Below are positions 4,058-28,234 of a stretch of 32,623 nucleotides of DNA, piece after piece. The notes beneath the pieces were generated by a model. It was not told where the DNA came from. It saw only the letters and a program-made list of their open reading frames with translations, and ran no database searches. The stretch's first letter is position 1. Each line of letters starts with the position of its first letter. The position numbers and the translations under genes are program-made. Source of the stretch: Verrucomicrobiales bacterium (GTDB lineage: Bacteria > Verrucomicrobiota > Verrucomicrobiia > Verrucomicrobiales > V1-33); the NCBI GenBank assembly GCA_028293125.1, contig JAQGPJ010000056.1:1-32623 (forward strand), given 5' to 3'.

Positions 4058-4196
4058 AGAAGGGAAGGCGCTGGTGGATGGAACTGAATTGGGTGGTGGT
4101 CACAAGGAAAGGCTGTGTGCAGAATCACACTGGCCGTAAAGCAAAGACATTGAATTGATTAAGCGAGAAAGATTTTCAGATAATCCGTTTCCGGCG

Positions 4197-5669: not shown

Positions 5670-5689
5670 GCCGGGATCATCCGGCGGGC

Positions 5690-8600: not shown

Positions 8601-9922
8601 AGGGACTGGAGGGAGGCCAGCCCCGCCAGCGGTTCCAGCGTCGTCAGCTGGTTGTGGGAGCATTTGAGGGACTGAAGGGAGGCCAGCCCCGCCAAGGGCT
8701 CCAACGCCGTCAGCCGGTTGCCGGAGCATTTGAGGGACGGAAGGGAGGCCAGCCCCGCCAAGGGCTCCAACGTCATCAGCCGGTTGCTGGAGCAGTCGAG
8801 GAACTGGAGCGCGGAGAGTCCCGCCAGAGGCTCCAGCGCCGTCAGCTCGTTTTCGGAGCAGTCGAGGGACTGGAGGGAGGAGAGCCCCGCCAGCGGCTCC
8901 AGCGTCGCCAGCCGGTTGTGAGAGCATTTGAGGGACTGAAGGGAGGCCAGCCCCGCCAAGGGCTCCAGCGTCGTCAGCCCGTTGCCGGAGCAGTCGAGGG
9001 ACCGGAGGGAGGTGATTCCCGCCAGCGGCTCCACCGTGGTTAGCGCGTTGCCGGAGCAGTCAAGGGACTGGAGGGAGATGAGCCCGGCCAGCGGCTCCAG
9101 CGTGGTCAGCCCGTTGCCGGAGCAGTCAAGGGACCGGAGGGAGGTGATTCCCGCCAGCGGCTCTACCGTGGTCAGCGCGTTGCCGGAGCAGTCAAGGGAC
9201 TGGAGGGAGGCGAGTCCTGCCAGCGGCTCCAGTGTCATCAGCCCGTTGACGGAGCAGATAAGGAACCGGAGGGAGGGAAGCCCCGCCAGCGGCTCCAGCG
9301 TCGCCAGCCCGTTGCCGGAGCAGTCGAGGGACCAGAGGGAGGTGAGCACGGCCAGCGGCTCCAGCGTCGCCAGCCGGTTGCTATGGCAGACGAGGGACTG
9401 GAGGAAGGCCAGCCCCGCCAGCGGTTCCAGCGTGGTCAGCCGGTTGTGGGAGCAGTCGAGGGACTGGAGGGCGGAGAGTCCTGCCAGCGGCTCCAGCGTC
9501 GCCAGCCCGTTGCCGGAGCAGTTGAGAGAGTGAAGGGAGGAGAGTCCCGCCAGCGGCTCCAGCGTCGTCATCTGATTTCTGGAGCAGTCGAGGGACTGGA
9601 GGGAGGCAAGTCCTTGGAGGGGGATCAGGTCCTCCCATGTCATTCCGCAGATGTGGAGATGCCTCAGATTTGGAAAGCTGGACCAGCGCGTCTCCTTGGG
9701 GGTTGGCTGGTTTTGCCCCAAATCAGATTCCGCCTTCCTCCAATCCCCATTCTTATACCAGCCTCTCCCAAGATTCAGTTCGATGAGATGCTCCAATTCC
9801 CACAACTCCTCCGGCCAGTTTTGGAGTCCCAGCCTTCCTAGATCGAGAAACCCCGTCCTCTCCTCCCTCTCTTTGGCGATGCGCTCACGGGCGATTTTCA
9901 GACCTTCGGATTCATAGAGCAT
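5690..9922 (-). CDS. LRR-Roc-COR-TIR-CHAT multidomain immune-like protein
   Basis: A 1410-residue protein and the first gene of the minus-strand run (ATG 9922). In order: a helical N-terminus (1-95); about 16 leucine-rich repeats of 22 residues (about 104-449; consensus LASLQSLDCSGNGLTTLEPLAG); a Roc GTPase at about 505-680 with P-loop GNGRIGKT (514-521), WDFGGQ (558-563) and NRCD (628-631); a COR domain (about 715-900); a TIR domain of the TIR_2 type (about 1000-1130) with AVSYAW and SENCMFEL, in which Glu1073 sits where TIR NADases keep their catalytic Glu; a Ser/Thr-rich linker (1180-1207); and a C-terminal CHAT caspase-like protease (1210-1410) with HFSGHG (His1279) and FNACFS (Cys1322). 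Known parts suggest sensing by the LRRs, a GTP switch in Roc-COR, and output by NAD cleavage and/or proteolysis. Two effectors on one ROCO chain is unusual. Confidence 0.92.
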   Translation of the reverse strand: MLYESEGLKIARERIAKEREERTGFLDLGRLGLQNWPEELWELEHLIELNLGRGWYKNGDWRKAESDLGQNQPTPKETRWSSFPNLRHLHICGMTWEDLIPLQGLASLQSLDCSRNQMTTLEPLAGLSSLHSLNCSGNGLATLEPLAGLSALQSLDCSHNRLTTLEPLAGLAFLQSLVCHSNRLATLEPLAVLTSLWSLDCSGNGLATLEPLAGLPSLRFLICSVNGLMTLEPLAGLASLQSLDCSGNALTTVEPLAGITSLRSLDCSGNGLTTLEPLAGLISLQSLDCSGNALTTVEPLAGITSLRSLDCSGNGLTTLEPLAGLASLQSLKCSHNRLATLEPLAGLSSLQSLDCSENELTALEPLAGLSALQFLDCSSNRLMTLEPLAGLASLPSLKCSGNRLTALEPLAGLASLQSLKCSHNQLTTLEPLAGLASLQSLNCWNNPVERLPEKLVWQESLLTLIIPSAVLDSIPVETLSRSHDDNCLERLRAHFRDLKAGEALLPDVKVMILGNGRIGKTQLCNRLRGLPFEENADSTHGITVASQKFGPDTLLRFWDFGGQDIYHGTHALFMRDRAIFVLVWTPDSENSAAHEHGGMIFRNRPLAWWLSYVRHLAGPESPVLLVQNRCDRAEDRILWPPVGPEELEAFPFFQALQYSALNQKGGKVLRGALEEVVDQLRERQGQARIGRGRMKVKARLDALLLEDAAVTDSSKRRHRTLPMERYEEICVECGGVSSPALLLDYLHRSGMVFYKSGLFGGCIILDQGWALEAVYTVFNRDKCFRELRRLHGRMTRTLLEALAWHEHSEDEQKLFLDFMLSCGICFVHRRENEKLGFETEYIAPDLLPDYETLTQETKDRWREGLPGDEAVVELPFAHPGVMRALLIRIGNLAGMTPVYWRDGVCLYESTHGSYARIEQRLEERPPVIVIRTREGESLSLLMELAQWVRETAELSGLTEVRVRLPEGSDTKSRNVAESAIPDRQSSPSLIFDAMPPTGTTTCAVSYAWRDKSHETVDRLCREAEARGIRIIRDVTDVGLGEKLSRFMTSLAGQDRVFVILSDAYLHSENCMFELSEIWRLSQQNDTKFHERVRVFRLPDARIYDMGYQLDIIEHWEQEYQKVHARVTPLTGRGTLSEAMLRRFNNLKAFAQRAGEIVPGIADRLLPKDFEQFAAHGFTDNSSTPSSISAGTESSSTAPASHSPSRTPMNEKQKILFLAANPTDTARLALDVECRDIEAGIQAAALRDHLELHTKFAVRPKDLLHHLQRYTPHIVHFSGHGSPDEAIVLLGSDEKAKPVSTAALTQVFTTLRDNIRVVVFNACFSRDQAEAVTSVIDCAVGMRRAIGDKAAITFAAAFYESIAFGRSIKTAFEAGKAAIMLEGISEENTPVLLTRSGVDPAKIVLIDPNPT
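8576..9613 (-). repeat. 66-bp tandem repeats encoding the LRR array
   Basis: This stretch is built of 66-bp units, one 22-residue LRR each, many of them nearly identical in DNA. A two-repeat (132-bp) block containing the CSGNALTTVEPLAGI variant is present twice in a row (residues about 242-285 and 286-329), a sign of recent unequal crossover. It is coding, not a CRISPR array. Confidence 0.9.
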
Positions 9923-11430: not shown

Positions 11431-13485
11431 TTAATCGACACCAAGAGCTTTGAAGACTGCGTCGGCGGGATCAGAGTAGAAGCTGGTTTGGAACTTGGCG
11501 AATAACTCTCCTGGGACGGTGGGTATGTCGGAGACGCTCGACATGGGAAGGAGGATCCGCCTGGCTCCGGAATTGAAAGTTACTTGGAGGGTTTCCGCGA
11601 GGCTTTCGACGGGAATGCTGCTGCCACCCAGGCTCATGGTGCCGAGCACCACCAGTTGGGATTGGAGGGGGCGCTGGAGAAGCGCGGAGCAAAGGGCCAC
11701 AAAAGCTGCCAGGGTGAGCGCGTTGGCGGGGCCGCTGTTGTGGAGTTCGACGAGGTGAAGATGGAAATCGCGTTCCCCGGGCTTAAGGGAGGCGCTGATC
11801 CGGCTGGCGTTGGCTTTGAAATAATCGAAACCCACTTTGATGCCTTCCTTGGCGGCGGAATTATTGCCCAGACCGGAGATTTTCAGGCCCCCGCTTCCTG
11901 CGGTCACCTGAGTTTCCAAACGGTACAGGCCCAGCAGCGAGGAGCCACGGGCCACGGTGTGCAGCACCCCGGGGTTCAGCGCTCCATCGGGAATCAGGGA
12001 GCCACCGCCCTGCTCGGGGACGCTGATGAATTTTTCCACTCCGGTTTCCGTGTCCGTGTAGCTGAAGTGCACGTCGTAAAACTCCATGCCGCCGATTTTT
12101 TTCAGCTGCTCCTTCACCCGGCGGCGGCTTTCCAGCGCGTAGTCGAGACATCGGGCAACCGCTTCCCGGGGGTAATCCTCATTCGGGTAGAGCAGCTTCA
12201 GCAGTCCGGAAACGGTTCGTTTCACCGCGATGGTGTCCCGCTGATTCAGATCCCGGCCCAGCCGGAAATGCTTGCTGATGGCATCTCCAAAACTCCGCTT
12301 CCGCAGTTCCCGCATCACCTCGGCAAGGTAGTCGACAATGAATCCATATCCGTCCGTGAAGAACTCCGGACGCATTTTAGGGATTTCCCAGCCGGGGATA
12401 TAACAGTGGAACCGGTCAAAAAATGCGGTGTCGATCATGGTTTCCGGAAAAGGAGCCAGGAGGTGGCTGGTCTTCACCAGCGTGTCCACCGGCTGGTTGA
12501 TGTTGCCCACAAACACCATGGAGGCGGAGGCGTTGATCGAGTCCCGGCCACGTGCGAAGGAGCCGGAGGCCATATAGTCCTTCATGATCTGGACTCCATC
12601 CTTGTCGTCGAAATTGATGCCCGCCACTTCATCAAAAGCCACCACATCCCACAGCCCGACCAGCCCCACCCGGCGGGAACTCATGTTGTAGAACAGGTTC
12701 GCCACCGACGTCTTGCCGCCGGAGATCAGAATGCTGTTGGGGCTGATTTCCTTGTAAATGTGGCTCTTTCCGGTGCCGCGCGGCCCCAGTTCGCAGACGT
12801 TGTAATTGTTCTCCACCAGTGGGATCATGCGGGCCAGCAGGTGCCACTTCACACGGCTGGGGAAATGGGCGGGCTCCATGCCCGTGGAGCGCAGCAGCAC
12901 ATCAATCCACTGCTCCTCGGTAAAACCCGCGCGTCCCTGAAAAAAGTCCTCCAGATCCACATTCGGCATCTGGATCGGTTTCAGTTCCTCCACCACAAAG
13001 GGCGATCCTTTTTGTCCCTCCTCGTAAAAATAGGACAGGGTCACGATGCACCAGATTCCCCCCGCCAGCAGTTTCTCATACTCTTTGATCCAGCGTGTCC
13101 CCACCTCAACGCCCTTGGTGCCCAGATTGGAAAGCAGCGCCTCGTAAACATCCCGCTTCTCGTTCAGCTTCACCGTCACTTTGTCGATGACCTTCATGCG
13201 GCCGCGCTCCCGGATGGTGGATTTCACCTTTTCAGCCTCATCCGGACGGACATAGTTTTCGGCCAGGACTTTCTTCACCGTCCTCAGCCCTTCCGCGATG
13301 ATTTCCTCATCGCGCGAGGCGCAGTAAGTGCCCAGCAGGTATTCCAGGACGTAAACCGGCACATTGGCTCCCTCCTTGACCAGCTTGGTCAGGTCCTTCC
13401 TCACCACTTTTCCGGCGAAGTGGCGGTTCAGCAGCTCATCAATATTTTCCGGGTCGGAAGCGGGCACGGAATCAGAAGTCATCAT
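11431..13485 (-). CDS. brxL: BREX protein BrxL (Lon-like AAA+ ATPase)
   Basis: The last gene of the type 1 BREX operon, 684 residues. The N-terminal helical domain contains the family-like start LNRHFAGKVVRKDL. The AAA+ core has Walker A GPRGTGKS (234-241), Walker B VVAFDE (281-286) and an arginine-finger-like FFDRF (355-359). The C-terminal Lon-protease-like domain (about 520-684) keeps the fold signatures, but the GPSAG serine motif reads GPANA (585-589) and the downstream Lys is not evident, so proteolysis is unlikely. BrxL multimers bind DNA and are needed for phage restriction but not for methylation in studied type 1 systems. ATG 13485 overlaps the 3' end of pglZ by 14 bp, which implies coupled translation. 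Confidence 0.95.
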   Translation of the reverse strand: MMTSDSVPASDPENIDELLNRHFAGKVVRKDLTKLVKEGANVPVYVLEYLLGTYCASRDEEIIAEGLRTVKKVLAENYVRPDEAEKVKSTIRERGRMKVIDKVTVKLNEKRDVYEALLSNLGTKGVEVGTRWIKEYEKLLAGGIWCIVTLSYFYEEGQKGSPFVVEELKPIQMPNVDLEDFFQGRAGFTEEQWIDVLLRSTGMEPAHFPSRVKWHLLARMIPLVENNYNVCELGPRGTGKSHIYKEISPNSILISGGKTSVANLFYNMSSRRVGLVGLWDVVAFDEVAGINFDDKDGVQIMKDYMASGSFARGRDSINASASMVFVGNINQPVDTLVKTSHLLAPFPETMIDTAFFDRFHCYIPGWEIPKMRPEFFTDGYGFIVDYLAEVMRELRKRSFGDAISKHFRLGRDLNQRDTIAVKRTVSGLLKLLYPNEDYPREAVARCLDYALESRRRVKEQLKKIGGMEFYDVHFSYTDTETGVEKFISVPEQGGGSLIPDGALNPGVLHTVARGSSLLGLYRLETQVTAGSGGLKISGLGNNSAAKEGIKVGFDYFKANASRISASLKPGERDFHLHLVELHNSGPANALTLAAFVALCSALLQRPLQSQLVVLGTMSLGGSSIPVESLAETLQVTFNSGARRILLPMSSVSDIPTVPGELFAKFQTSFYSDPADAVFKALGVD

Positions 13486-16090
13486 GGAAAGCCTTGTCGA
13501 TGGTTACGGAATGGCGGCTGCGCTCGATGCCCGTCGCGTCGTCGACCAGGCGAAGGTGGTATGTTTTTTTGCTGTCGTAAATCTGATCCAGCAGAGTCAG
13601 GGAAATAAATTGCGTCAGCTCAGTCATGTTGCCGGAACCGCTCTGGAATGTTGCTTTAACGATATCCGTCACCGTCTGATCCCCGTCCCACACCGCCACT
13701 TTCAGAGTCAGGGGTTTCACCCGGTCCGAGACGGCTTCAGCCTGGATCAGCTGGAACCGGTGACGGGACGTGGTGATTTTATGATTCTTGCCCACCACAA
13801 TGACGTCCACCTCCCTGGTCTGGGTCTGGAGCTTCGATTTCCCATCGATTTCATTCACGGTGAGCAGCGGGATCATGATTTCCTGAAGCATGGCCCCTCC
13901 ATGCACAAACCGCGCTCCACCCACAAAGTGAAACCGCGTGGTGCCTTTGGGAACCCAAAATTCCATGCCGCCATCGGCTCCGGCCGTGATTTCCGTGGTG
14001 CCGTGCCAGACAGCGGGGTCCGTTGGAAGGTGATGGCCGAGCAGGTAGCGTTTTTTCGAAATCACCGCGCCTGACGGCTTGCAGGGCATGGGCGTTTTGT
14101 CAGGGGCCGAAGGATTGGAATCCTGATACAGAAAACCGTGATCCGCCGTGATCAGGACTTGAGTGCCGTTCAGCTTGTCGATAATCTGCCGGGTCAGTTG
14201 TGCCAGTTCCTGAATGGCTTCCCTTACGGCCTTGAAGGTCCCGCTTTCCGTGGAGGCGGAGTCCCCGGCGGCATCCACCGCATTATGGTAGATGTAAACG
14301 ACCCGTTTGCCGCGGATCCGCTCCCGGGCCTCGTCGCGTTTCATTCCCATCACCGTCCCGGCGGTAAGAGCGGTGCCATGGTAAGCGGCCAGAATGGCTT
14401 CCCGGGCCTCCAGTCCGGAGGTGGTCTTTCCATCGGCGAAAACCTCACCGCTTTCCCTGCAGGCCAGTGTTTTGTGCGGAAGCAGGCTGGCCATCCCGAG
14501 CGCGGTGCAGGAGGGCAGCACCCCGAGCATTGTTTCAAGAGTGGCCTTCATGCGGTATCGGCCATTCAGTTCCGCCGCCAGTTCCCTCGCGGCCTCGTAG
14601 CGGAAGGCGTCGCTGATAATCACAAATATCCGCCGGTTGGGACTTTCCTCCAGAATGGGAGCGACCCGGCTGGCGAAAAAATGCTGCTGGTTGAGCACGC
14701 CGGACAGTTTCCAGCTCTTCAGCAGTTCACCTTCCACGGCGGTTCCCCAGGCCAGCGCGAGCCCGCTCAGGAAGCCGGTGCCATAATGCCGCTCAATTTG
14801 TTCACGCAGGGGTTTCAGAATATCCCAGGCCTGCGCTTCCGCCACGTCCGCGTGCTCACAAAACTGCCGGTAAACCTGGTCCACACGGTGGAGCCCGCTT
14901 TCGTAGGCTTTCCAGTGAGCCAGGGCGTCGGGCTGGTGAAATCCCCCGGCATACTCCCGCCGCAGCTCCAGAAATTCCGCCGCGGCCATCAGGGCCGCAT
15001 ACACTGCCCGGTAGGCGGATCGGGGGGTTTCCCGGGTGTCGGGAAGGCTGACGGAGGCCCAGTGACCGTCCGTGCGGCGTCGGACGGCTGTTTGGATGTC
15101 TGCGGCTTTCACGGTGTCCGGGGCTTCGGTCAGACGGTTCCGCATCATCCGCATCATCCCCTTTTCCACCTCCACAAAGGTCATCACGCCCTCCAGAGCA
15201 TCGCTTCCCAGGGTCGAAATCCCGTCCTCCACACGCAGCAGCCGGGCGACTTTTCCCGCCAGATGGTCGTAAGCCTCTCCTGTCCGGTTGCTGTCCCGCC
15301 ATTGGGAAAGAAAAATCACCGCGTTCGGTCTGCCGGACGCTGGCAGCAGCAGGGAGTGAAGGGCTGCGGGAACAGGCCCGGAGCCGCGCAGACTCTCGGC
15401 GAAATCCGTCGCCAGCAGCCGGATCAGCAGATTTCCTAGGGAAGGCGTATCCTCCGTGTAGCCAAAGCGCCCAAAGACCTCCTTCCAGAAAACCCCGTCC
15501 AGTTCCAGCTTCTGAAGCAGTTCCCATCCGGCGGTGGGAATGGCGAAATCCAGTTCCGCCGTGTCGGCCATTTCCTGAAAGAGCACGCGGAGAAAGCTGA
15601 AAAGCTCCGGCTGGTCGGACTTGAGAAGCACCGCCGTCATTTTCCGGTCCAGCTCCGCCTCCATGTCCGTGGGCTGCACCAGTGGCAGCAGCTTTTTCAC
15701 GCGGTCCCTGGATTCAAAAAATCTGCGCCGCAGAATCAGATGCGCCCGCAGACCGTGAGTGATCAGGCCGAGGTCGTGGAGGAGAATGGACGCTTTGTCC
15801 GCGCGGAAATTGTGCGCATAGTGGCGGATGTCCAGAAGCCAGTCCTCCTCCATTGGCGGCGGCTCTTTGGCGCTGTAGAGCAGGTATTTTCCCTTGGGAT
15901 CATCCAGCTCCAGCCTCTTTTTGACTTCGAGGGCGGATTCTCCGTCCAGGCGGATCGGCGTCACGCCTTCCAGGGCCAGCTGTTCCAGCACTTCCTGAAA
16001 CTCGCGGTCGGGATCATTCCAGAACACGATCCGGTGCCCCTGGTCCTGATAAAGGCGGGTGAGCGCGGTGCTGATTTGATCGGAGTTCAT
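13472..16090 (-). CDS. pglZ: BREX protein PglZ (alkaline-phosphatase superfamily)
   Basis: An 872-residue core BREX protein. The N-terminus (IVFWNDPDREFQEVL) is typical of type 1 PglZ. The phosphatase-superfamily domain occupies about 485-740, with metal-ligand motifs ISDAFRYE (Asp494) and TADHGF (Asp650-His651), and LPSCTALGM, where Thr529 fits the nucleophile position. Relatives are metal-dependent nucleases/phosphodiesterases that associate with the other BREX subunits. It follows pglX after a 111-bp gap that contains a short hairpin and an unconvincing 28-codon ORF, and it overlaps brxL by 14 bp. Length and motifs are complete, so it should be functional. Confidence 0.96.
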   Translation of the reverse strand: MNSDQISTALTRLYQDQGHRIVFWNDPDREFQEVLEQLALEGVTPIRLDGESALEVKKRLELDDPKGKYLLYSAKEPPPMEEDWLLDIRHYAHNFRADKASILLHDLGLITHGLRAHLILRRRFFESRDRVKKLLPLVQPTDMEAELDRKMTAVLLKSDQPELFSFLRVLFQEMADTAELDFAIPTAGWELLQKLELDGVFWKEVFGRFGYTEDTPSLGNLLIRLLATDFAESLRGSGPVPAALHSLLLPASGRPNAVIFLSQWRDSNRTGEAYDHLAGKVARLLRVEDGISTLGSDALEGVMTFVEVEKGMMRMMRNRLTEAPDTVKAADIQTAVRRRTDGHWASVSLPDTRETPRSAYRAVYAALMAAAEFLELRREYAGGFHQPDALAHWKAYESGLHRVDQVYRQFCEHADVAEAQAWDILKPLREQIERHYGTGFLSGLALAWGTAVEGELLKSWKLSGVLNQQHFFASRVAPILEESPNRRIFVIISDAFRYEAARELAAELNGRYRMKATLETMLGVLPSCTALGMASLLPHKTLACRESGEVFADGKTTSGLEAREAILAAYHGTALTAGTVMGMKRDEARERIRGKRVVYIYHNAVDAAGDSASTESGTFKAVREAIQELAQLTRQIIDKLNGTQVLITADHGFLYQDSNPSAPDKTPMPCKPSGAVISKKRYLLGHHLPTDPAVWHGTTEITAGADGGMEFWVPKGTTRFHFVGGARFVHGGAMLQEIMIPLLTVNEIDGKSKLQTQTREVDVIVVGKNHKITTSRHRFQLIQAEAVSDRVKPLTLKVAVWDGDQTVTDIVKATFQSGSGNMTELTQFISLTLLDQIYDSKKTYHLRLVDDATGIERSRHSVTIDKAFHDDF

Positions 16091-16201: not shown

Positions 16202-19200
16202 TCAGTCCTCTTTGGCGCCGCACACTTTTTTCGCTTCCGCCACGAGAGGACCGAATTTGGCGTAATTCACCTTCACGCCGTCATCCAGATCCAAGGCGAT
16301 GCGCTGGTCCGCGTAGTGGCGGAGCTGCTCGTCGAATTGGATCAGCTCCGCCTGCTGCTTTTTGAGCTGGTCCTGTTCCGTCTGGAATTTTTTGCTCTGG
16401 GCGCTGGAGCTGGCCTTCAGTTTCCCGTCGTCCAGATTGGCGATGCGGGCGCTCAGCTTTCCCTGAAGCGGGATCACGTATTCCGTGCGGATCCGCGCCA
16501 GGGTGCCCAGGGTGTAGCGATGGAGATAGACCAGGCATTGGAAGGCTTTCTGCTTGCCGCTGGAGAAGAGCCAGTAGATGGGCCGGTTTTTGTAGGTTTG
16601 CAGGTGGTCCTTGCCGAAGTCATTCTGGAAATACGTCCTCAGGTCCTTGCCCAGAGCTTGCTTGAGGAACTGCAGGTTCCCGTTCAGCGCGGCCTCGCCG
16701 AAGGTTGCGCGGAGGAAATCGCGGGTGCGGGCCACGATGTCGTCCTCGAACCACTCGCCATCGAGCACGGGGATGATGCCGTCCTCGTCGGGGGCGAAGG
16801 TGAGTTCGGCCAGTGGTTTTCCCACTTTTTCCAGAAACTCACGGAGTGAGTCGCCAGCATTGGCGAGGATGAGGCCGGGGTGGTCGGGGGAATAGCGGCC
16901 CATCATGCAGCCGACGGCATAGGAGAGGAAGGCGGCCATGTCGCGGCGGGCCTCAGCGCGGGCGAGGGTGATTTGCTCCTCGGGCACTTCGGGCTGCAAC
17001 TCGCCGTCGAGGCCGTAGGCGGCGATGAAGAGCCGGTTGTTCTCCGTCTCCAGCTCCTGCATCCGGCGGACCGCGGCGGTGCTCTGCGTCTCCCAATTCC
17101 GCCAGCTCGCTTCCAGCGTCGCGCCCTTCAGCCCCGGCCGCAGCAACGGCTGGTCGCGGAAATCCCACGAGGTCTCGAAGTTGTCCCAGTCGGCGCGTGC
17201 GAGGGCAATGCAGCTTTCAGGAATTTCACTAAATTCACCAGATCGAGAACTAAAATGCTGCGGCAGAGGAATGTTCTGAATATCCCCAATATTGCAGTTC
17301 AAGGTCGGGTTAAAGAGGTGGACGATAAAGTTGCCAACCTTACTGTTTGCGACACCAAGAAGGGCAATTGTGGTCTGGCGATCAGCGAACAGAGTAGGTG
17401 CAGCAAGATTGAAAATATGTCCTGCCTCTTTAATTCTAAACCCTTTCAAAGGGCTCGATGAAATTAAGTTCCAGCAGAATCCCTCACGCTCCCAAAGATA
17501 TTCCGGAATTATTCGGGCAACATGATCGCTTCTGTAGTGTTTGCAGGCCGATTCTGTCCAGTTCACGACCGAGTCAACATTGCCATACCATTTTCTGTAT
17601 TCACCGCCCTTGGGATGAAATCTCCACGATCTGGGTGCCACAAGCGCCTTACTTATCTCCCAGAATTTCCTAATGAATCGGTCATTGTCTCCTGTTTTTG
17701 TCTGACCATCCGACTGAGTAATGCTGCCAATGTTTTCCCCAGTTTCAAAAACCCCGATTGTTTTGTTGGGAACAAAATAACCAATTGGCGTTCCCGGTAT
17801 TTTCAAAAACGTTTTAGCTGCAGCCCTATAGAACCAACCGCAATTTGGGTTACTGATCGCCTCTAAGGTGCGTGGCCCCTGTTGCTCTGAGCCACGAAAA
17901 TCGGAGAGGCGAATGTAGGAACCGAGATGATCCAACAGATTGTGATTCAGTAATGTGAACGTGCAGATAGGCACAGTCGCTCCATCAAATCCGGAATATT
18001 CAAGCTGAACCAGCGACGTGATTGTTGCTTTGCCGGTCAGAAGGATACGAAGATCCCGATATGAAGCGATGAACATCCACACGAAAGGAGACATGAATCC
18101 CATTCGACCAAACGGCAAACTTAAGGACAGACAACGAGCAAGGAAGGCTGCGAACAAGTCATATTTATATTCTGAGAAATTGTTCTGTAAGAATGTCTTT
18201 AGTTTGGGATTCATCCCCTTCGCGCCCATATACGGCGGATTGGCCACGACGACGTGATACCGCTGGGTGAGCGCCTCAGCTTGTTCGAGCACGCGCAGGA
18301 CTTTGAGGTGCGTTCCGCGCAGGAAAAGATGGCCGCCGAGTTCCTTCGCCTCGATGGCGCGGCTGAGGTCGGCGATTGCCCGTTCGTCGAAGCACGGCTG
18401 GATGAGCGATCCGAAGGTCTTCGCCTCCTCGAACTGGTGGAGCAGTCGGAGCACGGGCTGATTGAAGAGGTCGCCCAGCCTGAGGGTGTGAGTGTAGTCG
18501 TGCAGCTCGTCTTCCCCGAAGCGCACGTCGCGCAGCTCGATGATGCGGGGCCGGACAAGGTGTTCCGGCTGGAAGAAGCGACGGGACTTTTGCCGGGCCT
18601 TGAAGACGAGGGCCAGCTCGGCGAGCTGGGCGGCGCGGGGGCAGATCTCCAGCCCGTGCAGATTGTGCCGCAGGATAAGGCCGGGAATATCAGGGGGCGC
18701 GTAGCCTTCCTCCTCATAGATGAGGGTGAGCAGGTCGAAGGCGTAGGTGAGCATGTGCCCGCTGCCGACGGCGGGATCCACCAACCGGATTTCCTCGGGT
18801 TTGGTGATTTTGAGGAAGTCGGTCTCAGCGGCGGAAGAGGCCTCCACGCCGACGAGGGAAAGGTCCGGCAAATCAACGGTGTGGGAGGACCACTCCCGTT
18901 GCCATGCGAGGCACAGGGCGGTGTGGCAAGCACGGAATTGCTTCATCTCCTCCAGCACCGGTCCGCTGCCGGAGCCCCACTTCATGGCCCTTTGGAGGAA
19001 AAAGAGGCAGCATCGCAGATCCTCGAAGGAGGCATATTCCCAACCTTCCCGCTGAAGCTCCTCCACTTTATTCCCGTCGGGGTCGCCCCACCGGCTGCGG
19101 GCATAAGCATAGCCGTCAACGGTCAGGGCGTAGGCTTGGGAGGAGTCATCAATATCGTCGTCCTCTTTCGCAGGGACGGCGGGCAGAGGTTGGGGACGCA

Positions 19201-20119
19201 GCCACATCCACTTCTGGAATTCCCCTTCCCGGAAGGAGATGCGGTTTGTCCACCCGGCCTGCCAGGCCGGCGGCTCGGCGGTGGCGGGCTCGATGTAGTA
19301 GGGCATGTGCCCGCGCAGCCGGGAGCCGGGACGATTGAGCAGCCAGAGCCGGCCGAGGGAGTTTTCGACAAGGTAGCGGACGATCCAGTGCGGAGTGAAG
19401 AGCTGAGTGACGGCGGGAATGTCCTCGGTCGGAACGGCGCTCTTGCGGGCCATGACCGCATCCTTTTTCTCCGAGATATAAAACTGGTAGAGCCAGCCAA
19501 GGACTTCCACCTGCTGCCAGTCCTCCTCCCCGCTTCCCGCGACGAGCTGGCGGATGACGGAATCCGAATGCAGGAGATTGTCCGGCAGCAGCAGGATGGT
19601 GGCATCATCCAGGCGGCTGAAAATGGAGGGCAGGATGCGGTACAGCTCCTGACACTGGGCCAGCAGCAGCAGGCGGTAGAGTTCCTCGTCCCGGGTGCCG
19701 TCCAGTTTGAGGCGGATCACCTCCGCGCGGTCCAGCCCCTCCAGTGTGACGTGTTCGGCTTTCTCCAGCAGCTCCGGCAGGGAGCCGTGCTCCGGATGGC
19801 TGAGCACCCGGTAGCCGTGGGACAGGTAGCCATGCAGCTCCATGTAGCGAAGCGCCACGAAACGGTTGAACCAAGTGTAGGCGATGGCCTCCATGGCGGG
19901 CTCGAATCCATCCCTGCCGATGCGCTCCAGAAGATCGCGCCGCAGCGGGACCACGCTCCGGGGAAACGGCTGCCCGCCAATGACGGCCAGATCTCCCGTT
20001 TCCGTGAGCGGCTCCACCGCGTCCTCCCGGATGCCAAGCACGACCGCCCGGCGTTTGACGGCTTCAATAAATGCCGTGCGGGCGGCGGGAGCGTAGGTTT
20101 TGAGTTTGCTGAGGTTCAT
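16202..20119 (-). CDS. pglX: BREX adenine-specific DNA methyltransferase PglX
   Basis: A 1305-residue type 1 PglX, the site-specific N6-adenine methyltransferase that marks host DNA and sets BREX specificity. Methyltransferase motif I is LVDPAVGSGHM (Asp448) and motif IV is VVANPPY (627-630). The C-terminal third is helical with a coiled-coil-like stretch near 1250. The segment after NPPY to about residue 965 (nucleotides about 17215-18230), which should hold the target-recognition domain, is visibly AT-richer than both flanks, as if exchanged. ATG 20119 overlaps the brxC stop as ATGA, so translation is probably coupled. No frameshift or truncation was found. Confidence 0.96.
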   Translation of the reverse strand: MNLSKLKTYAPAARTAFIEAVKRRAVVLGIREDAVEPLTETGDLAVIGGQPFPRSVVPLRRDLLERIGRDGFEPAMEAIAYTWFNRFVALRYMELHGYLSHGYRVLSHPEHGSLPELLEKAEHVTLEGLDRAEVIRLKLDGTRDEELYRLLLLAQCQELYRILPSIFSRLDDATILLLPDNLLHSDSVIRQLVAGSGEEDWQQVEVLGWLYQFYISEKKDAVMARKSAVPTEDIPAVTQLFTPHWIVRYLVENSLGRLWLLNRPGSRLRGHMPYYIEPATAEPPAWQAGWTNRISFREGEFQKWMWLRPQPLPAVPAKEDDDIDDSSQAYALTVDGYAYARSRWGDPDGNKVEELQREGWEYASFEDLRCCLFFLQRAMKWGSGSGPVLEEMKQFRACHTALCLAWQREWSSHTVDLPDLSLVGVEASSAAETDFLKITKPEEIRLVDPAVGSGHMLTYAFDLLTLIYEEEGYAPPDIPGLILRHNLHGLEICPRAAQLAELALVFKARQKSRRFFQPEHLVRPRIIELRDVRFGEDELHDYTHTLRLGDLFNQPVLRLLHQFEEAKTFGSLIQPCFDERAIADLSRAIEAKELGGHLFLRGTHLKVLRVLEQAEALTQRYHVVVANPPYMGAKGMNPKLKTFLQNNFSEYKYDLFAAFLARCLSLSLPFGRMGFMSPFVWMFIASYRDLRILLTGKATITSLVQLEYSGFDGATVPICTFTLLNHNLLDHLGSYIRLSDFRGSEQQGPRTLEAISNPNCGWFYRAAAKTFLKIPGTPIGYFVPNKTIGVFETGENIGSITQSDGQTKTGDNDRFIRKFWEISKALVAPRSWRFHPKGGEYRKWYGNVDSVVNWTESACKHYRSDHVARIIPEYLWEREGFCWNLISSSPLKGFRIKEAGHIFNLAAPTLFADRQTTIALLGVANSKVGNFIVHLFNPTLNCNIGDIQNIPLPQHFSSRSGEFSEIPESCIALARADWDNFETSWDFRDQPLLRPGLKGATLEASWRNWETQSTAAVRRMQELETENNRLFIAAYGLDGELQPEVPEEQITLARAEARRDMAAFLSYAVGCMMGRYSPDHPGLILANAGDSLREFLEKVGKPLAELTFAPDEDGIIPVLDGEWFEDDIVARTRDFLRATFGEAALNGNLQFLKQALGKDLRTYFQNDFGKDHLQTYKNRPIYWLFSSGKQKAFQCLVYLHRYTLGTLARIRTEYVIPLQGKLSARIANLDDGKLKASSSAQSKKFQTEQDQLKKQQAELIQFDEQLRHYADQRIALDLDDGVKVNYAKFGPLVAEAKKVCGAKED

Positions 20120-23100
20120 TCTTTGATCTGAATCCTTTCGTTTTGGGCAAGGGCATCCTGAAGTTCCACGCGCAGCCGGGTGAGGAAATCCTCCACCTCG
20201 GGTCCGGATTCGAGGAAGGGCTTGGAAAGAAGAGAGCTGATCCGGACAATTCTCCTAAGTTTGACGCCAGCTTGCTCCTCCGCTTTCGGCGTGTTTGTCG
20301 AAGAGTTCACCTGCTTCCGCGTGGACTCCTCAATGGCGGAAACCGCTATCTCGAAAAGGTCGAGAGCCTCCCGGGCGGCTTGGTCGATGTGGGCGATACT
20401 GTCGTAGGTGCAAACCTTTTGCCGCAGACTGTCAAAATTCCCGAGAACCTCCTGCCGGAGGGGCTCGTTGGTTCCGGCCTGATCGAGCTCCGCTTTCGTC
20501 TGGCCGAGCCGCTCCTCAATGGTGCCCAGCACTTGGGCCCGGCGGGCGGAGAGCATGGCCAGATTGATTTCCTGCACGGAATCGATGAGTCCACGGGCCT
20601 CGCTGAGCATGCCGTAGGGAGCCGCAGCTTGGAGAATCCGCTCCATGCGCAGCAATGCGGGGGCGGCGGCGGGGTCGCGCTCCAGCTCCAGTTGATTCAG
20701 CCGGAAACGGATGGTGGCTCGGCGCAGCTCCTCCCACAGGGGGCGCTGTTTGGTATAGAAGTTCGAAAGCTGGTGGAAACTTTCGGATAGGTCGAGGATT
20801 TCATCCTTGCTGGCATTGAACTGGGCGAGAAACGCCTGGTTTTCGGTTTGGGCCAGCAAACGCTGCATGGGGCCGATGCCCGTCGCGAGAGCTTCCAGGC
20901 CCGGGTATTCCCCATTGTGGGCCAGGCTTTGGAACGATTGGAGGTCCTTCAGCCAGCTCTGAAAGTGCGCCCGGAGGTGGGAGCAAAGTCCTTCCTCGTG
21001 ATCCGGCCCCATTTCCCCGAAAATCTCCTGTCCCAGTTTGCGGGCTCTCTGGAGTTCGGCGGGATCGGTGAGAATCCGCTGCGTGAGGGTGATCTGCCGC
21101 CATTTGGCGGTGGCGGTGAGTTCTTCGAAGGCACGGTCCAGGGGAATTTTGGCCCCGGCCCGGACGAGGTGGATTTCCCCCGTCACCAGCAGCCTCGCGA
21201 CGAGGAGGATGGTTTCCAGGGAGGGCCAGCCATAGGGCCGTCCGGAAAAACGGTCCTCCACCAGATCGTGGAGCACAACCACCCGGCTGGCTTGGCGGCA
21301 CAGGCTGAGGTAATCCCGCAGTTCCTGAATAGCCTTGGGGTTTCCTTGTTCAGTCTTAAGGGCCAGCGTCTGCTGGCCGATATCATTGGCCCGGAGCACA
21401 GCCTGGATTTCCTTCAGCGGCTCTGTCACCAGATGCTGGAGATAATCCGTTTTAAGATAAGTATTCCTGATGAGGTAATCCAGGGAATCCCCGACGACGG
21501 TGGCGGGACCGGCGGTTTTGGGCTGAAAGGGTTGTCCGGCCACAAAACACAAGGCGCGGGTGACGAGGCCTGTCAGAGCCAGAACAAGACGCTGGCGGCG
21601 CTGGCGGTTATCATCGGCGAAATCCCGGAGAATGCGCTGGGTGGACGAGTTCTGGGTGCCGTCGCTCGTTTTGGAGGTGAACCTCTCGGTCTGCAGGTAG
21701 ATGCGGACTTCGCGGGCCAGGGAATCGTGGTCTCCAAGCCGGAGAATGACCTGGCCATTGTCCTCAACGCTGGCCATCGTGCAGCGTCCGCTGTCATAAA
21801 GATCGTATTCATCGTTGAGGGGCGTGATGAATTGGACGGTGAGGGCGTTTTCCGCCCGGCTGCCATGAGGATGCCGGTCGCAAACGCGGATGAGAGGGAA
21901 ATCCTTCCCGTTCACGGAATACCGATGCTTGCGCTGTTCCTTGAGAACCTCGTCAAAGATGAGTTCGCCCATGAGCCTGGCTTCCGCTCCCGGATCCAGC
22001 TCCTGATTTTTGATTTCGCGGCTGAGATCGCGCTCCTCATTGGTGAGAAAAGAGAAATTGTCGCCGTTGCGGTTCACAAGTGTCTGGCCCTCAAGCCGCA
22101 GAAGGCTGGATTCGATCCTCCGCCGGAGAGTCAGGCGGTCGGTATCGATCTCGTCCATGCAGAGAGCGACAAGGTTTTCGACGTTGCCCTTCACCTCATC
22201 GACATACCGGATGAGAAACAGGACCTTGAGCATGTGGATATCAAAAGGCTCCAAAGCCTGATTCGTGGAGGCCTGGTCGATGGTGCGTTTGACGGCGGTG
22301 TCGAGGAAGTTTTCGATGGAGGGGTAAAAACGATAGAGCGGCACCAGCACGCCCGGCGGGCAGTCTTTGATCTGCACGGTGGCGGACTGGAAGGCATCCA
22401 GAAGGGAGCGCTCCCCGCGCGCAAGATGCATCCCGGTGGCCCCGGCCTTGCGGATGGCTTCGAAGATTTTTTGAACCAGTTGGAACTGATAGGGGATGAA
22501 CGGGTAAGTGGCGGCGAAATCCGCGGAATCCCGGTAGGATTTCATACTCATGCCGGTGTGGCCGAAAGTGAGCTGATTGCGGATGACATCACCTTTCTCC
22601 GCGTGGAGCTTTTCCAAAACCCCGGTGGCGTCCCTGGTTTTGGCCAGGAGCCGGGCCCGGATGACCTCGTCCACATTGGCGCTGGAGAGGGACATGCGCG
22701 TGGTGAAGCGGGCGGTGATGCGCGAAAAATCGTTGGCGCGCGTGGTGTTCATGACGCCGATCACCGCGTCAATATCCTCCTGGGAAGTCACGATAACCCA
22801 GGCCCTTCCGCCGCAGCGGGTGCCCAGAGTTTCGGTGATGGTCTGGAGGCTGAGCATCAGCTGGGAGTTTTGCCCGATAAAGGCTCCCATCTCGTCGGCG
22901 AAGAAAAGCAGCCGGTGGTCCGGTCCCTTGCTGTCGAGGTATTCCTTAACCCAGTCGCAGAAACTCTCCACAGTGAGGGAGAAATTGCCTTCAGCGTTGT
23001 CGAACCATTTGCTGGAGGCCTCACCGGATTGTCCCAAAGCCGAGGAAAGAGCGCAGATCATTTCATCGCGGTAGAAATCGAAGGCGTCGCGCTCGGTTTC

Positions 23101-23703
23101 CCATGATTTCCCGGCGGCCTCGAGGAAGGCCGTTTTGAAGGCTTCAAGCTTCCCGCGCTCGTCCAAGTGGCGCTCCATGTGCGCGATGTGAGGGGGTGAA
23201 CCCGCATAGCCCTGCAATTCATTGAGCATCCGCAGAAGCACGGACAGGATGGCGTCGCGGTTCGAGGCGTGGTCGGCTTTGGTCTCGATATTGAAGAGGA
23301 CCACTTCCGTCGGATGAGCCAAAGCGCGCCGGATATCGGCGTAGAACATGCCGTCCTTTATTTTGGATTCAAAAAAATCGACGGTGCGCTTCGTCCTGCC
23401 GTCCATATGCAGCTCGCGATTTTCCATGAGATAGGAAAGAACCTTCAGGAAGTGGGATTTCCCGGAGCCGAAAAAGCCGGAAATCCAAACTCCGATCTGT
23501 CCGGCCACCTGCGCGCTGTTGAGATTTTCAGCGACGTTCAAATAACTCCGGAAGAAGCTGTGGAGGTGCTTGTCCAGCTCATGGGTGACCACGAATTCGT
23601 CCAGTTCCTGCCACACGGAAGCATCATCCTGCTGGTCGGCCTTGACGACGCCGTTGATGGGACGGGCGATGTCACGTTCGAAAATGTCTTGGATTCTCAT
23701 CAT
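20116..23703 (-). CDS. brxC: BREX ATPase BrxC (PglY-like)
   Basis: A 1195-residue large P-loop ATPase of BREX. The start IQDIFERDIARPINGVVKA is characteristic of BrxC. Walker A is GFFGSGKS (76-83), and LLFFADEMGAF further on fits Walker B. The C-terminal third is largely helical. BrxC is required for both methylation and restriction in studied type 1 systems and assembles with BrxB, PglZ and PglX. It begins 12 bp after brxB and shares ATGA with pglX. ATG 23703 is followed by a second ATG one codon later, and either could be used. Confidence 0.96.
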   Translation of the reverse strand: MMRIQDIFERDIARPINGVVKADQQDDASVWQELDEFVVTHELDKHLHSFFRSYLNVAENLNSAQVAGQIGVWISGFFGSGKSHFLKVLSYLMENRELHMDGRTKRTVDFFESKIKDGMFYADIRRALAHPTEVVLFNIETKADHASNRDAILSVLLRMLNELQGYAGSPPHIAHMERHLDERGKLEAFKTAFLEAAGKSWETERDAFDFYRDEMICALSSALGQSGEASSKWFDNAEGNFSLTVESFCDWVKEYLDSKGPDHRLLFFADEMGAFIGQNSQLMLSLQTITETLGTRCGGRAWVIVTSQEDIDAVIGVMNTTRANDFSRITARFTTRMSLSSANVDEVIRARLLAKTRDATGVLEKLHAEKGDVIRNQLTFGHTGMSMKSYRDSADFAATYPFIPYQFQLVQKIFEAIRKAGATGMHLARGERSLLDAFQSATVQIKDCPPGVLVPLYRFYPSIENFLDTAVKRTIDQASTNQALEPFDIHMLKVLFLIRYVDEVKGNVENLVALCMDEIDTDRLTLRRRIESSLLRLEGQTLVNRNGDNFSFLTNEERDLSREIKNQELDPGAEARLMGELIFDEVLKEQRKHRYSVNGKDFPLIRVCDRHPHGSRAENALTVQFITPLNDEYDLYDSGRCTMASVEDNGQVILRLGDHDSLAREVRIYLQTERFTSKTSDGTQNSSTQRILRDFADDNRQRRQRLVLALTGLVTRALCFVAGQPFQPKTAGPATVVGDSLDYLIRNTYLKTDYLQHLVTEPLKEIQAVLRANDIGQQTLALKTEQGNPKAIQELRDYLSLCRQASRVVVLHDLVEDRFSGRPYGWPSLETILLVARLLVTGEIHLVRAGAKIPLDRAFEELTATAKWRQITLTQRILTDPAELQRARKLGQEIFGEMGPDHEEGLCSHLRAHFQSWLKDLQSFQSLAHNGEYPGLEALATGIGPMQRLLAQTENQAFLAQFNASKDEILDLSESFHQLSNFYTKQRPLWEELRRATIRFRLNQLELERDPAAAPALLRMERILQAAAPYGMLSEARGLIDSVQEINLAMLSARRAQVLGTIEERLGQTKAELDQAGTNEPLRQEVLGNFDSLRQKVCTYDSIAHIDQAAREALDLFEIAVSAIEESTRKQVNSSTNTPKAEEQAGVKLRRIVRISSLLSKPFLESGPEVEDFLTRLRVELQDALAQNERIQIKE

Positions 23704-23715
23704 GATGCGAAAGGG

Positions 23716-24288
23716 TCAGGGAACGAGTTTGAAGGCGCGGTAGTAAGGGCCTTTCAACTTGCCGAAAAGGCGCACATACTGGCCGTCATAGGTGCCGGGG
23801 TAGAACATCACCAGGGGCGTCCGGCCCATGCGCGGCTGGAGCGCGGCCAGCAGGCTGTGGGTGCGGACCACGGGAAACACGCTGCCAACCCCCGAGACCA
23901 GCACCAGATCATGCGCGCCGCCACCCACCTCGGCTGCAAAGGCGTCGGCCAATTTTGCGCCCTCGAACTGGGGAGCCAGGGTTTTGATCAAAGCAACATC
24001 ACCGTCCCGCTTCTGTTTGTCGTAAGCCCGTTGCAAAAATCCCCGGGTTTGGAGCGATTTGATGAACAGCTCGAAAAGATTCAGGTGCGCGACCTTCAGC
24101 TCGGGGTGCGCTTTGGCCAGATGGGGACCCAAAAAGGAGAGATAATCGCGGATTTTCAGCTCCGCGTCGGGAGGATAATCGAAAATGTGGAAGGCCACTT
24201 CGTTGCCAATACCTGTGCTCCGCAGGAATCCCTCCGAAGTGATTCTGGCCGGGATTTGGTTGAGGCGTTCTTCGAGGTTGCCGGTCAT
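23716..24288 (-). CDS. brxB: BREX protein BrxB (DUF1788 family)
   Basis: A 190-residue protein with the conserved BrxB C-terminus: LVLVSGVGSVFPVVRTHSLL, then TPLVMFYPGTYDGQYVRLF. BrxB is a small core subunit that links BrxC and PglZ in known complexes. ATG 24288 overlaps the brxA stop as ATGA, and the stop lies 12 bp before brxC, so it sits in the middle of a tightly coupled operon. Length is normal. Confidence 0.95.
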   Translation of the reverse strand: MTGNLEERLNQIPARITSEGFLRSTGIGNEVAFHIFDYPPDAELKIRDYLSFLGPHLAKAHPELKVAHLNLFELFIKSLQTRGFLQRAYDKQKRDGDVALIKTLAPQFEGAKLADAFAAEVGGGAHDLVLVSGVGSVFPVVRTHSLLAALQPRMGRTPLVMFYPGTYDGQYVRLFGKLKGPYYRAFKLVP

Positions 24289-24884
24289 GATAGCTGGAGG
24301 GTGCGTAAAAGAGAAAATTCCCTGCGGTCTTCCAGATAAGCCTGTAATTCGGGGAGAATGGTGACCCGCCGCAGTTCACGGGAAGTGGTGTCTGTGAGAT
24401 ATCCGCCTTGGGCTAGGATTTGAAACACGGACGAGCGCAGCCGCTTCCGGGTGGCCTCGCGCCACACAGGCATCGCCGGATCCCGGGACTGGCAGAGTTC
24501 AAGAAACGGTGCCCATACGCCGCTGGAAAGGTGGGTCCGGAAGAGGCGGTGCTCCTCGCGCAGCACCAGTTCCAAGAAATCCCGGAGCAGCGCGCTATCC
24601 TTCACCGCCGCAGCCAGCAGGGCCTGAGTGGCCAGAGGTTTGGAGCCGTCCCGCACCATGAGCCAAAGCCCGTCGTCGAATTCCTCCAGACGGGAGCGGA
24701 TGAGTCTGGAAAGGCGGAGAGCCGTGGCGGATGTTCTGGACTGAAGCCGGTTTTCCCCCACGATGGCGGTTCTCCACTGCTCCTCCGTGGCTTTGTCGAG
24801 AAGCAGGCCCGCAATCACACGGCTCTCGCGTGGTTTCAAGGAACCGGCGGTCAGATCGGCACTGTAACGGGAAGTAATGGGCAT
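24285..24884 (-). CDS. brxA: BREX protein BrxA (DUF1819 family)
   Basis: The first BREX gene, about 199 residues from ATG 24884. RYSADLTAGSLKPRESRVIA near the N-terminus is the BrxA hallmark. BrxA is a small helical DNA-binding protein. The start was chosen because family members begin a few residues before this motif. ATG 24944 (20 residues longer) has a better-spaced AAGG upstream and is a real alternative. The open frame continues to 25073, but the extra residues are Pro-rich and resemble nothing. No dedicated BREX regulator (WYL/BrxR) is present nearby. Confidence 0.92.
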   Translation of the reverse strand: MPITSRYSADLTAGSLKPRESRVIAGLLLDKATEEQWRTAIVGENRLQSRTSATALRLSRLIRSRLEEFDDGLWLMVRDGSKPLATQALLAAAVKDSALLRDFLELVLREEHRLFRTHLSSGVWAPFLELCQSRDPAMPVWREATRKRLRSSVFQILAQGGYLTDTTSRELRRVTILPELQAYLEDRREFSLLRTLQLS

Positions 24885-25074
24885 GCGGGCGATGCGCTGG
24901 TTAGAAGGAATGTTTTCGATGACTGGCCATTGATGTCCCGCCATTTTCATCGCCTTCGCGGCATCCTCAATGGTGATTGATGTTCGGATCGCCGCAGGCA
25001 CAGGTGCAGGCAAGGGCCAGATTCTCACGGTCTGCCGGGCGGGGTGGCTCCCGGCCTTTGATGGCTTGGTCATT

Positions 25075-27281: not shown

Positions 27282-27355
27282 GGACACAAAAAGCGGACTG
27301 ATCGGACACATTTTGCGGACTGATCGGACACAAAAAGCGGACTAAAGGACACATG
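27282..27355 (+). repeat. Iteron array, probable plasmid origin (oriV)
   Basis: 22-bp direct repeats of GGACACAAAAAGCGGACTGATC start at 27282, 27304 (AAAAA replaced by TTTTG-type bases) and 27326 (21 bp, ending CTAAA), and a partial fourth starts at 27347. They lie directly before a Rep_3 initiator gene and beside an AT-rich stretch (27235-27269), the usual layout of an iteron-controlled origin. Confidence 0.85.
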
Positions 27356-27400
27356 CTTTTATTCTTGCGTCCCTTAACCTGCCCCGCCAAAGTCCCCGGA

Positions 27401-28234
27401 ATGGCCACAAAACAGACTGGAGACCTCATCGCCGTCATGGCGAACACTGTAGCCGAGGCTCGGCACGCGCTCACAGTGCCGGAGCAGCGGCTGATTCTCT
27501 GGCTCATCGCCCAGATCGACCGGGAGGACGACGTTCTACGGGAGCACAAGCTCAGCGTGCTGGAGTTCGCCGAGATCCTTGGAGGCAACAACAACCGCCT
27601 TTATGATCAGATGGAGGCCGCCTGCAAGCAGCTCAACAGCCGCGTTCTGGAGATCAGGACCGGGCCCAAAACACGCGTCGCCTTCCACTGGATGCAGCAG
27701 GTTCAGTATTTGGAGGATGAGTGCAGCATAGCCCTGCAGTTTCACATCAACTTGGAACCTGTCCTCCTCCAGCTCCGGGAGCGCTTTTGCCAGATCCCCA
27801 TTCGGACCGCGTTCCAGCTGCGGTCCGGCTACGCCATCCGGTGGCTGGAGATGCTCCACAGCCGCCAGCATCAGCGGACTTTTTACCTCACCGTCGAGGA
27901 GCTGCGGGACTGGCTCCACATCGAGCCCGGAGAGCTGCAGCGGATTGTCCACCTCAATCAGCGGGCTATCGACTACCCCCGGAAGGAGCTGGACGCCAAG
28001 TCTCCTCTTACGTTCACGAGCGAGTCCAAGAAAGTCGGCCGGAAAGTCGTCGGGTGGAAATTCACAGTCATCGACAACAAGCCCAAGCCCGTCACCAAAA
28101 TCCGGAAGCCCCGAACGTCAAAAGCCGCTTTGGCCCCGCCCGTCGATCCGGCTCAGCAGGCTGCCCACGCCGCCGCTCTCCGTGAGTTCAAAGCGGCGCT
28201 AGCCCCCGGTAAACCCCTGCCGTCGGCCCCGTGA
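27401..28234 (+). CDS. repB: Rep_3-family plasmid replication initiator
   Basis: A 277-residue initiator of the RepB/Rep_3 family, with two winged-helix domains. The N-terminal signature is TGDLIAVMANTVAEARHALT followed by VPEQRLILWLIAQID. A second block, QIPIRTAFQLRSGYAIRWLE with FYLTVEELRDWL, is the conserved second winged helix. It binds the iterons just upstream to open the origin. ATG 27401 is preferred over ATG 27353 because family members start about 10 residues before the VMAN motif and the earlier codon lies inside the last iteron. No strong Shine-Dalgarno site is visible. The C-terminus is a Pro/Lys-rich tail. It is followed by the partition operon on the same strand. Confidence 0.93.
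   Translation: MATKQTGDLIAVMANTVAEARHALTVPEQRLILWLIAQIDREDDVLREHKLSVLEFAEILGGNNNRLYDQMEAACKQLNSRVLEIRTGPKTRVAFHWMQQVQYLEDECSIALQFHINLEPVLLQLRERFCQIPIRTAFQLRSGYAIRWLEMLHSRQHQRTFYLTVEELRDWLHIEPGELQRIVHLNQRAIDYPRKELDAKSPLTFTSESKKVGRKVVGWKFTVIDNKPKPVTKIRKPRTSKAALAPPVDPAQQAAHAAALREFKAALAPGKPLPSAP

What the first reader, a model, noticed from the sequence alone, without database searches (positions are those of the whole stretch)
17215..18230. AT-rich island in pglX at the target-recognition region
Composition shifts sharply just after NPPY and shifts back near residue 965. The methyltransferase and helical parts on both sides are GC-rich. A swapped specificity domain would change the methylated motif and release phages from escape, as seen for Type I and BREX specificity genes.
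Basis: partly seen in the sequence, partly recalled or inferred. Interest (0 to 1): 0.6.

Follow-up and report, generated by a model that had tools for sequence, protein, structure and literature searches.

The report
Swappable DNA-recognition block in BREX methyltransferase
The AT-rich stretch is the part of a BREX anti-phage methyltransferase that reads the DNA target; it has a different ancestry from the rest of the gene, and relatives show that it is exchanged as two interchangeable pieces, which probably lets bacteria change which DNA motif is protected and attacked.

Summary
The island is real. The best-fitting segment is 17222-18211 (PglX codons 637-966), 45% GC against 63% in the rest of the gene, far beyond codon shuffles. 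The gene is pglX of a complete type I BREX operon, probably plasmid-borne. The segment starts just after NPPY and covers every base-reading element of E. coli BrxX apart from the catalytic pocket: the methyltransferase loop for base 6 and the whole TRD. Against the nearest backbone relative, identity is about 80% before it, 30% inside and 75% after. The island's phylogeny conflicts with the backbone's (AU p 0.0006 and 1e-7; reverse test 1e-54). In E. coli and E. fergusonii, near-identical pglX genes carry unrelated blocks, assorting as two modules: S1 (second half of the methyltransferase domain, base-6 loop) and S2 (TRD). An exchanged specificity block is thus supported. Two corrections: the block is larger than the TRD, and its AT-richness does not mark one recent import here. 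Nearly all of 117 PglX genes show it, always towards AT, and type I hsdS genes do too. The predicted target ends in AAT (methylated fifth A); untested. TRD exchange is a known kind; the two-module layout and the universal AT bias are the fresher points.

The parts
16202..20119 (-). pglX (brxX), 1305 aa, BREX adenine methyltransferase and specificity factor
   Evidence: PADLOC PglX E=0; BrxX/PglX structures E about 1e-231
17222..18211 (-). AT-rich exchanged specificity block, codons 637-966
   Evidence: Change-point scan; identity drop against relatives; tree conflict
17822..18211 (-). Module S1 as analysed (residues 637-766): second half of the methyltransferase domain, with the base-6 loop; natural boundary to S2 at about residues 755-766
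   Evidence: Maps to BrxX 518-644; moves separately from S2 in E. coli; gene split at 755/762 in L243 and 757/762 in L244
17969..18004 (-). Base-6 reading loop (residues 706-717, LEYSGFDGATVP), short type
   Evidence: Aligned to BrxX 587-601; role from PMC11842806
17222..17821 (-). Module S2 as analysed (residues 767-966): target recognition domain
   Evidence: Maps to BrxX 645-843; TRD is 651-837
17297..17299 (-). Codon of Asn941, equivalent to BrxX N823 and Salmonella S838, base-4 reader
   Evidence: Alignments; rule from PMC11341690
18230..18241 (-). NPPY catalytic motif (residues 627-630), conserved flank just upstream of the block
   Evidence: Translation, position
20116..23703 (-). brxC
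   Evidence: Pfam and PADLOC BrxC
23716..24288 (-). brxB
   Evidence: PADLOC BrxB
24285..25073 (-). brxA
   Evidence: PADLOC BrxA
13472..16090 (-). pglZ
   Evidence: Pfam and PADLOC PglZ
11431..13485 (-). brxL
   Evidence: Pfam and PADLOC BrxL

Best explanation
The island is the DNA-specificity block of PglX, replaced as a unit or in parts by homologous recombination between pglX genes. Conserved flanks anchor the exchange: the NPPY block upstream and the start of the C-terminal domain (ADWDNFETSWDF) downstream. The block is made of two modules that assort independently: S1, the second half of the methyltransferase domain, with the loop that reads base 6; and S2, the TRD, which reads bases 1-4. 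Exchange changes the six-base motif while the catalytic core, the N-terminal domain and the C-terminal domain, thought to contact other BREX proteins, stay matched to the operon. Because PglX sets specificity for both self-methylation and defence, both change together. Shown here: different ancestry of block and backbone; two-module exchange in E. coli; position of the block on the BrxX structure. Inferred: recombination through the flanks as the route; that the motif changed; that the target ends in AAT with the fifth A methylated (position 1 possibly G); that selection comes from phages avoiding or carrying the old motif. The AT-richness is a standing, directional property of these modules, not the dated scar of one import.
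For: L002 identity 82/80/29.5/75% for N-terminal part, methyltransferase core, island and C-terminal part. DNA identity to L002 drops from 97% to 53% at residues 620-639 and returns from 40% to 83% at 960-979. Distances of backbone blocks correlate at 0.37-0.74 with each other, but S1 and S2 correlate with the backbone at -0.11 to 0.10 and with each other at 0.15. Backbone groups the window with L002 and L039, S2 groups it with L009; AU tests p 0.0006 (S2), 1e-7 (S1), 1e-54 (reverse). E. coli series: EF117/L141 100% through S1 then 51%; L141/L146 S1 42% then 100% to the end; L143/L146 S1 99%, S2 54%. All BrxX base-contact elements for bases 1-4 and 6 fall in the block.
Against: No donor closer than about 54% protein identity over the block was found (L009), so the event is old or the donor is unsampled. 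No methylome for this genome. The motif rules rest on about four characterised systems, two of them close relatives. S1 and S2 trees have long branches, and the WIN+L009 grouping was named after the trees were seen.
Confidence: 0.9

Rival explanations
1. Fast diversifying evolution in place: the block diverged by substitution under selection, without exchange, and its AT-richness reflects relaxed codon selection.
For: TRDs are the most variable part of BrxX (PMC11842806); pairwise S2 identity among relatives is low throughout (median 35%).
Against: S1 identity is spread from about 20% to 90% regardless of backbone distance; identical modules sit on different partners in E. coli; trees conflict; equally variable backbone stretches show almost no GC3 dip.
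Confidence: 0.05
2. The AT-richness comes from an AT-ward pressure acting on specificity modules themselves (mutational, expression or selection), rather than from the composition of donors.
For: Mean island GC3 is below backbone GC3 in every host class above 0.2, including AT-rich and mid-GC hosts where exchange with an average pool predicts no difference or the reverse. HsdS genes show the same (-17 points, 15 of 17).
Against: An exchange pool dominated by AT-rich donors, with partial amelioration, gives the same pattern (slope 0.54-0.61); island GC does follow host GC.
Confidence: 0.4
3. Local shuffling: the block is switched from silent cassettes or by inversion within the same genome.
For: Tandem or partial extra pglX copies exist in some Bacilli (L246, L247), and pglX phase variation is reported (PMC11341690).
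Against: One copy of the block and of pglX in the whole assembly; no inverted repeats in or around the gene.
Confidence: 0.03

Closest known systems
E. coli HS BrxX / Salmonella PglX (type I BREX; PDB 9ewz, 8c45)
   Same: Same domain order, catalytic NPPY, sequence homology over residues 1-284 and 439-1301; model of residues 600-1000 matches them best.
   Different: Island is only about 27% identical to BrxX HS in both modules; short S1 loop type instead of long; extra sequence at residues 281-440 that almost no relative shares.
E. fergusonii pEFER PglX (GCTAAT) and Acinetobacter NEB 394 PglX (GTAGAT)
   Same: Same S1 loop type; S1 identity 57% and 61%, above the backbone identity of 45-54%.
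   Different: S2 only 31% and 28% identical, so bases 1-4 probably differ.
Type I restriction HsdS target recognition domains
   Same: Conserved frame with exchangeable recognition domains (PMC3077401, PMC12707154); also AT-rich against a neighbouring gene.
   Different: HsdS is a separate subunit with two TRDs; PglX is one chain in which one of the exchanged modules is half of the methyltransferase domain.
MmeI-family type IIL enzymes
   Same: Single-chain methyltransferase plus TRD; Pfam MmeI_Mtase hit; six-base asymmetric site with methylated fifth adenine (PMC11341690).
   Different: No nuclease domain was hit in the window's PglX, and it sits in a BREX operon.

Membership tests
Type I BREX | brxA, brxB, brxC, pglX, pglZ and brxL together | tested here: met
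   All six in order on the - strand
Type I BREX PglX/BrxX | SAM-binding and NPPY motifs in a gamma-type adenine methyltransferase | tested here: met
   DPAVGSGH and NPPY present; Eco57I and MmeI_Mtase hits
Type I BREX PglX/BrxX | TRD and C-terminal domain after the methyltransferase domain | tested here: met
   Aligned through BrxX 1199; fold match
Type I BREX PglX/BrxX | Methylates the fifth adenine of a six-base asymmetric motif | not testable with these tools
   Needs a methylome
Exchanged specificity domain (HsdS-like TRD exchange) | Conserved frame, unrelated recognition block among close relatives | tested here: met
Exchanged specificity domain (HsdS-like TRD exchange) | Block phylogeny conflicts with frame phylogeny | tested here: met
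Exchanged specificity domain (HsdS-like TRD exchange) | Exchange changes the recognised motif | not testable with these tools
   Inferred from the loop types and known motifs
Phase-variable shufflon or invertible pglX | Silent cassettes or inverted repeats near the gene | tested here: not met
   Single copy in the assembly; no inverted repeats

The most novel reading that the evidence does not exclude
Type I PglX specificity is a two-cassette combinatorial system: a limited set of S1 types, defined by the base-6 loop, combines freely with a very large set of TRDs. Specificity modules of BREX and type I systems share a directional AT bias across bacteria, so AT dips could be used to find exchangeable recognition modules from raw sequence.
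Probability: 0.5. Interest if true: 0.6.

Novelty: new member of a known kind. Interest (0 to 1): 0.42.

Why it matters
It shows how a BREX system can get a new target motif while keeping its machinery. It gives natural cut points for engineering: loop-only swaps in E. coli BrxX lost defence (PMC11842806), whereas nature moves the whole S1 half-domain or the whole TRD. It makes a testable motif prediction. It also warns that a composition dip in a specificity gene is a general property, not a dated import.

Tried and rejected
Composition dip as chance or amino-acid bias: rejected. Recent import specific to this genome: not supported, since 97% of 67 relatives have the dip. Symmetric exchange among hosts of all GC as the whole cause of the dip: does not fit AT-rich and mid-GC hosts. 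Silent cassettes in the same genome: none. Donor search: plasmids give islands at most 48% identical, viral contigs 39%, a sample of the same phylum 42% over the whole block. Full motif prediction: positions 2 and 3 could not be read; position 1 is uncertain because of an apparent two-residue shift around the arginine that should read it. The AlphaFold model of residues 600-1000 matches BrxX best but at rmsd 13.6 and TM 0.48, so it was used only for fold, not for contacts.

Full report
What was checked. The window is contig C80 of a 6.48-Mb assembly. It carries a complete type I BREX operon on the - strand: brxA 24285-25073, brxB 23716-24288, brxC 20116-23703, pglX 16202-20119, pglZ 13472-16090, brxL 11431-13485. 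A likelihood change-point scan of pglX puts the island at 17222-18211, codons 637-966, with 45.2% GC against 63.3% (gain 49.4; maximum of 100 codon shuffles 9.6). GC3 falls from 0.82 to 0.46, and the other large brx genes show no such dip. A 239-kb sample of the genome has 60.8% GC, with 1.3% of equal blocks as AT-rich. The drop also holds at fourfold sites (0.88 to 0.45-0.47).

What it is. Homology to E. coli BrxX and Salmonella PglX is strong over most of the protein (residues 1-284 and 439-1301). The island maps to BrxX residues 518-843. In the BrxX-DNA structure the TRD is 651-837 and reads bases 1-4 through R751, K681, D684, Q784 and N823; a loop at 587-601 in the methyltransferase domain reads base 6 (PMC11842806). 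All of these lie in the island. What lies outside is most of the catalytic pocket for the flipped adenine. The island is therefore the complete specificity part, not only the TRD.

Exchange. Against 67 full-length relatives the frame is conserved and the island is not: L002 has 82/80/29.5/75% identity for N-terminal part, methyltransferase core, island and C-terminal part. DNA identity to L002 falls from 97% (residues 620-629) to 53% (630-639) and returns from 40% (960-969) to 83% (970-979). Pairwise distances of backbone blocks correlate at 0.37-0.74, but those of S1 (637-766) and S2 (767-966) hardly correlate with the backbone or with each other. The backbone tree joins the window with L002 and L039; the S2 tree joins it with L009, a Deltaproteobacteria MAG whose backbone is far away. 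AU tests reject the backbone grouping for S2 (0.0006) and S1 (1e-7), and the S2 grouping for the backbone (1e-54). Two cautions: S1 and S2 trees contain long branches, and both groupings were read off trees before being tested, although WIN+L002+L039 came from the backbone and was tested on other columns.

Two modules. In complete E. coli genomes and the E. fergusonii plasmid pEFER, pglX genes with 91-100% identical frames carry unrelated blocks. EF117 and L141 are identical through S1 and then 51% in S2. L141 and L146 differ in S1 (42%) and are identical from residue 644 to the end. L143 and L146 share S1 (99%) and differ in S2 (54%). All four combinations thus exist, with the cut at BrxX 644-651, the hinge between methyltransferase domain and TRD. 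In Escherichia the 3' cut often lies further on (about 960-1000) than in the window's clade. In two genomes of the window's phylum pglX is split into two genes at the same boundary, window residues 755-762.

Motif. S1 loops fall into a few types. The window has the short LEYSGF-DGATVPIC loop, as do E. fergusonii PglX (GCTAAT) and Acinetobacter NEB 394 PglX (GTAGAT); E. coli HS (GGTAAG) and Salmonella (GATCAG) have the long HLGARAF loop. That predicts T at base 6. At the base-4 position the window has Asn941 (HS N reads A, E. fergusonii N reads A, NEB 394 H reads G, Salmonella S reads C), which predicts A. The prediction is NNNAAT with the fifth A methylated, position 1 possibly G. It rests on few systems and is untested.

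The AT-richness. The GC3 dip sits at the same place in 39 high-GC PglX genes, the window's included, from about residue 631 to 975, and is nearly absent (-0.01 to -0.05) from equally variable backbone stretches. Over 117 PglX genes, mean module GC3 is below mean backbone GC3 in all host classes above 0.2, by about 30 points in the most GC-rich hosts and slightly even in AT-rich ones (29 hosts, p 0.001-0.005). Exchange with an average pool would raise GC in AT-rich hosts; it does not. Either the pool is AT-rich and imports ameliorate only partly, or the modules are under an AT-ward pressure. HsdS genes from the same phylum show a 17-point deficit against one neighbouring gene (15 of 17); this is a small control in which the neighbour was not identified. 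So the dip is a general mark of exchangeable recognition modules, and not proof of a recent import here.

Mechanism and limits. Most likely pglX recombines with other pglX genes through conserved flanks, taking in a new S1, S2 or both. Because PglX is the specificity factor for both methylation and defence (PMC11341690), both change together. Phage escape as the selective force is an inference. The operon is probably on a plasmid (Rep3 initiator at 27353-28234 with 22-nt direct repeats at 27282-27343 just upstream), which would favour such meetings.

Novelty. Variability of the BrxX TRD is published, and TRD exchange is long known in type I systems (PMC3077401). In the papers searched and read, no description was found of two independently exchanged PglX modules or of a universal AT bias; the library is incomplete, so this is not a claim of priority.

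Noticed in passing
27282-28234: Rep3-family plasmid replication initiator (27353-28234) with about three 22-nt direct repeats just upstream (27282-27343), like iterons: the 32.6-kb contig is probably a plasmid or part of one that carries the BREX operon. No end overlap was found.
   Followed up: partly
L243 (290-6903) and L244 (1-9044), same phylum as the window: pglX is split into two genes exactly at the S1/S2 boundary, with a UG5-nitrilase defence reverse transcriptase gene between the halves (intact in L244; only its nitrilase part plus an AlbA_2/HATPase gene in L243). Of seven genomes with this reverse transcriptase in the phylum sample, two have this layout. No paper on this link was found.
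   Followed up: partly
702-9922: Downstream of the BREX operon lies a group of likely defence or signalling genes: leucine-rich repeat/Roc-COR/TIR/CHAT protein (5690-9922), NB-ARC/TPR protein (4197-5669), EAD1-trypsin protein (3056-4057) and EAD1/TPR protein (702-3083). The first has a 66-nt tandem repeat at 8601-9607.
   Followed up: no
401-1900: The lowest-GC stretch of the window (about 43% over 1 kb) is here, not in pglX.
   Followed up: no
L246 and L247 (Bacilli genomes): Two full tandem pglX genes in L246, and a full pglX next to a second one broken in two in L247: possible local reservoirs of specificity modules.
   Followed up: no
L245 (318-7121): pglX broken inside the TRD module by Mu/Tn7-like transposition genes (an integrase-core protein followed by an ATPase).
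   Followed up: no
31464-32621: IS66-family transposase running off the contig end.
   Followed up: no
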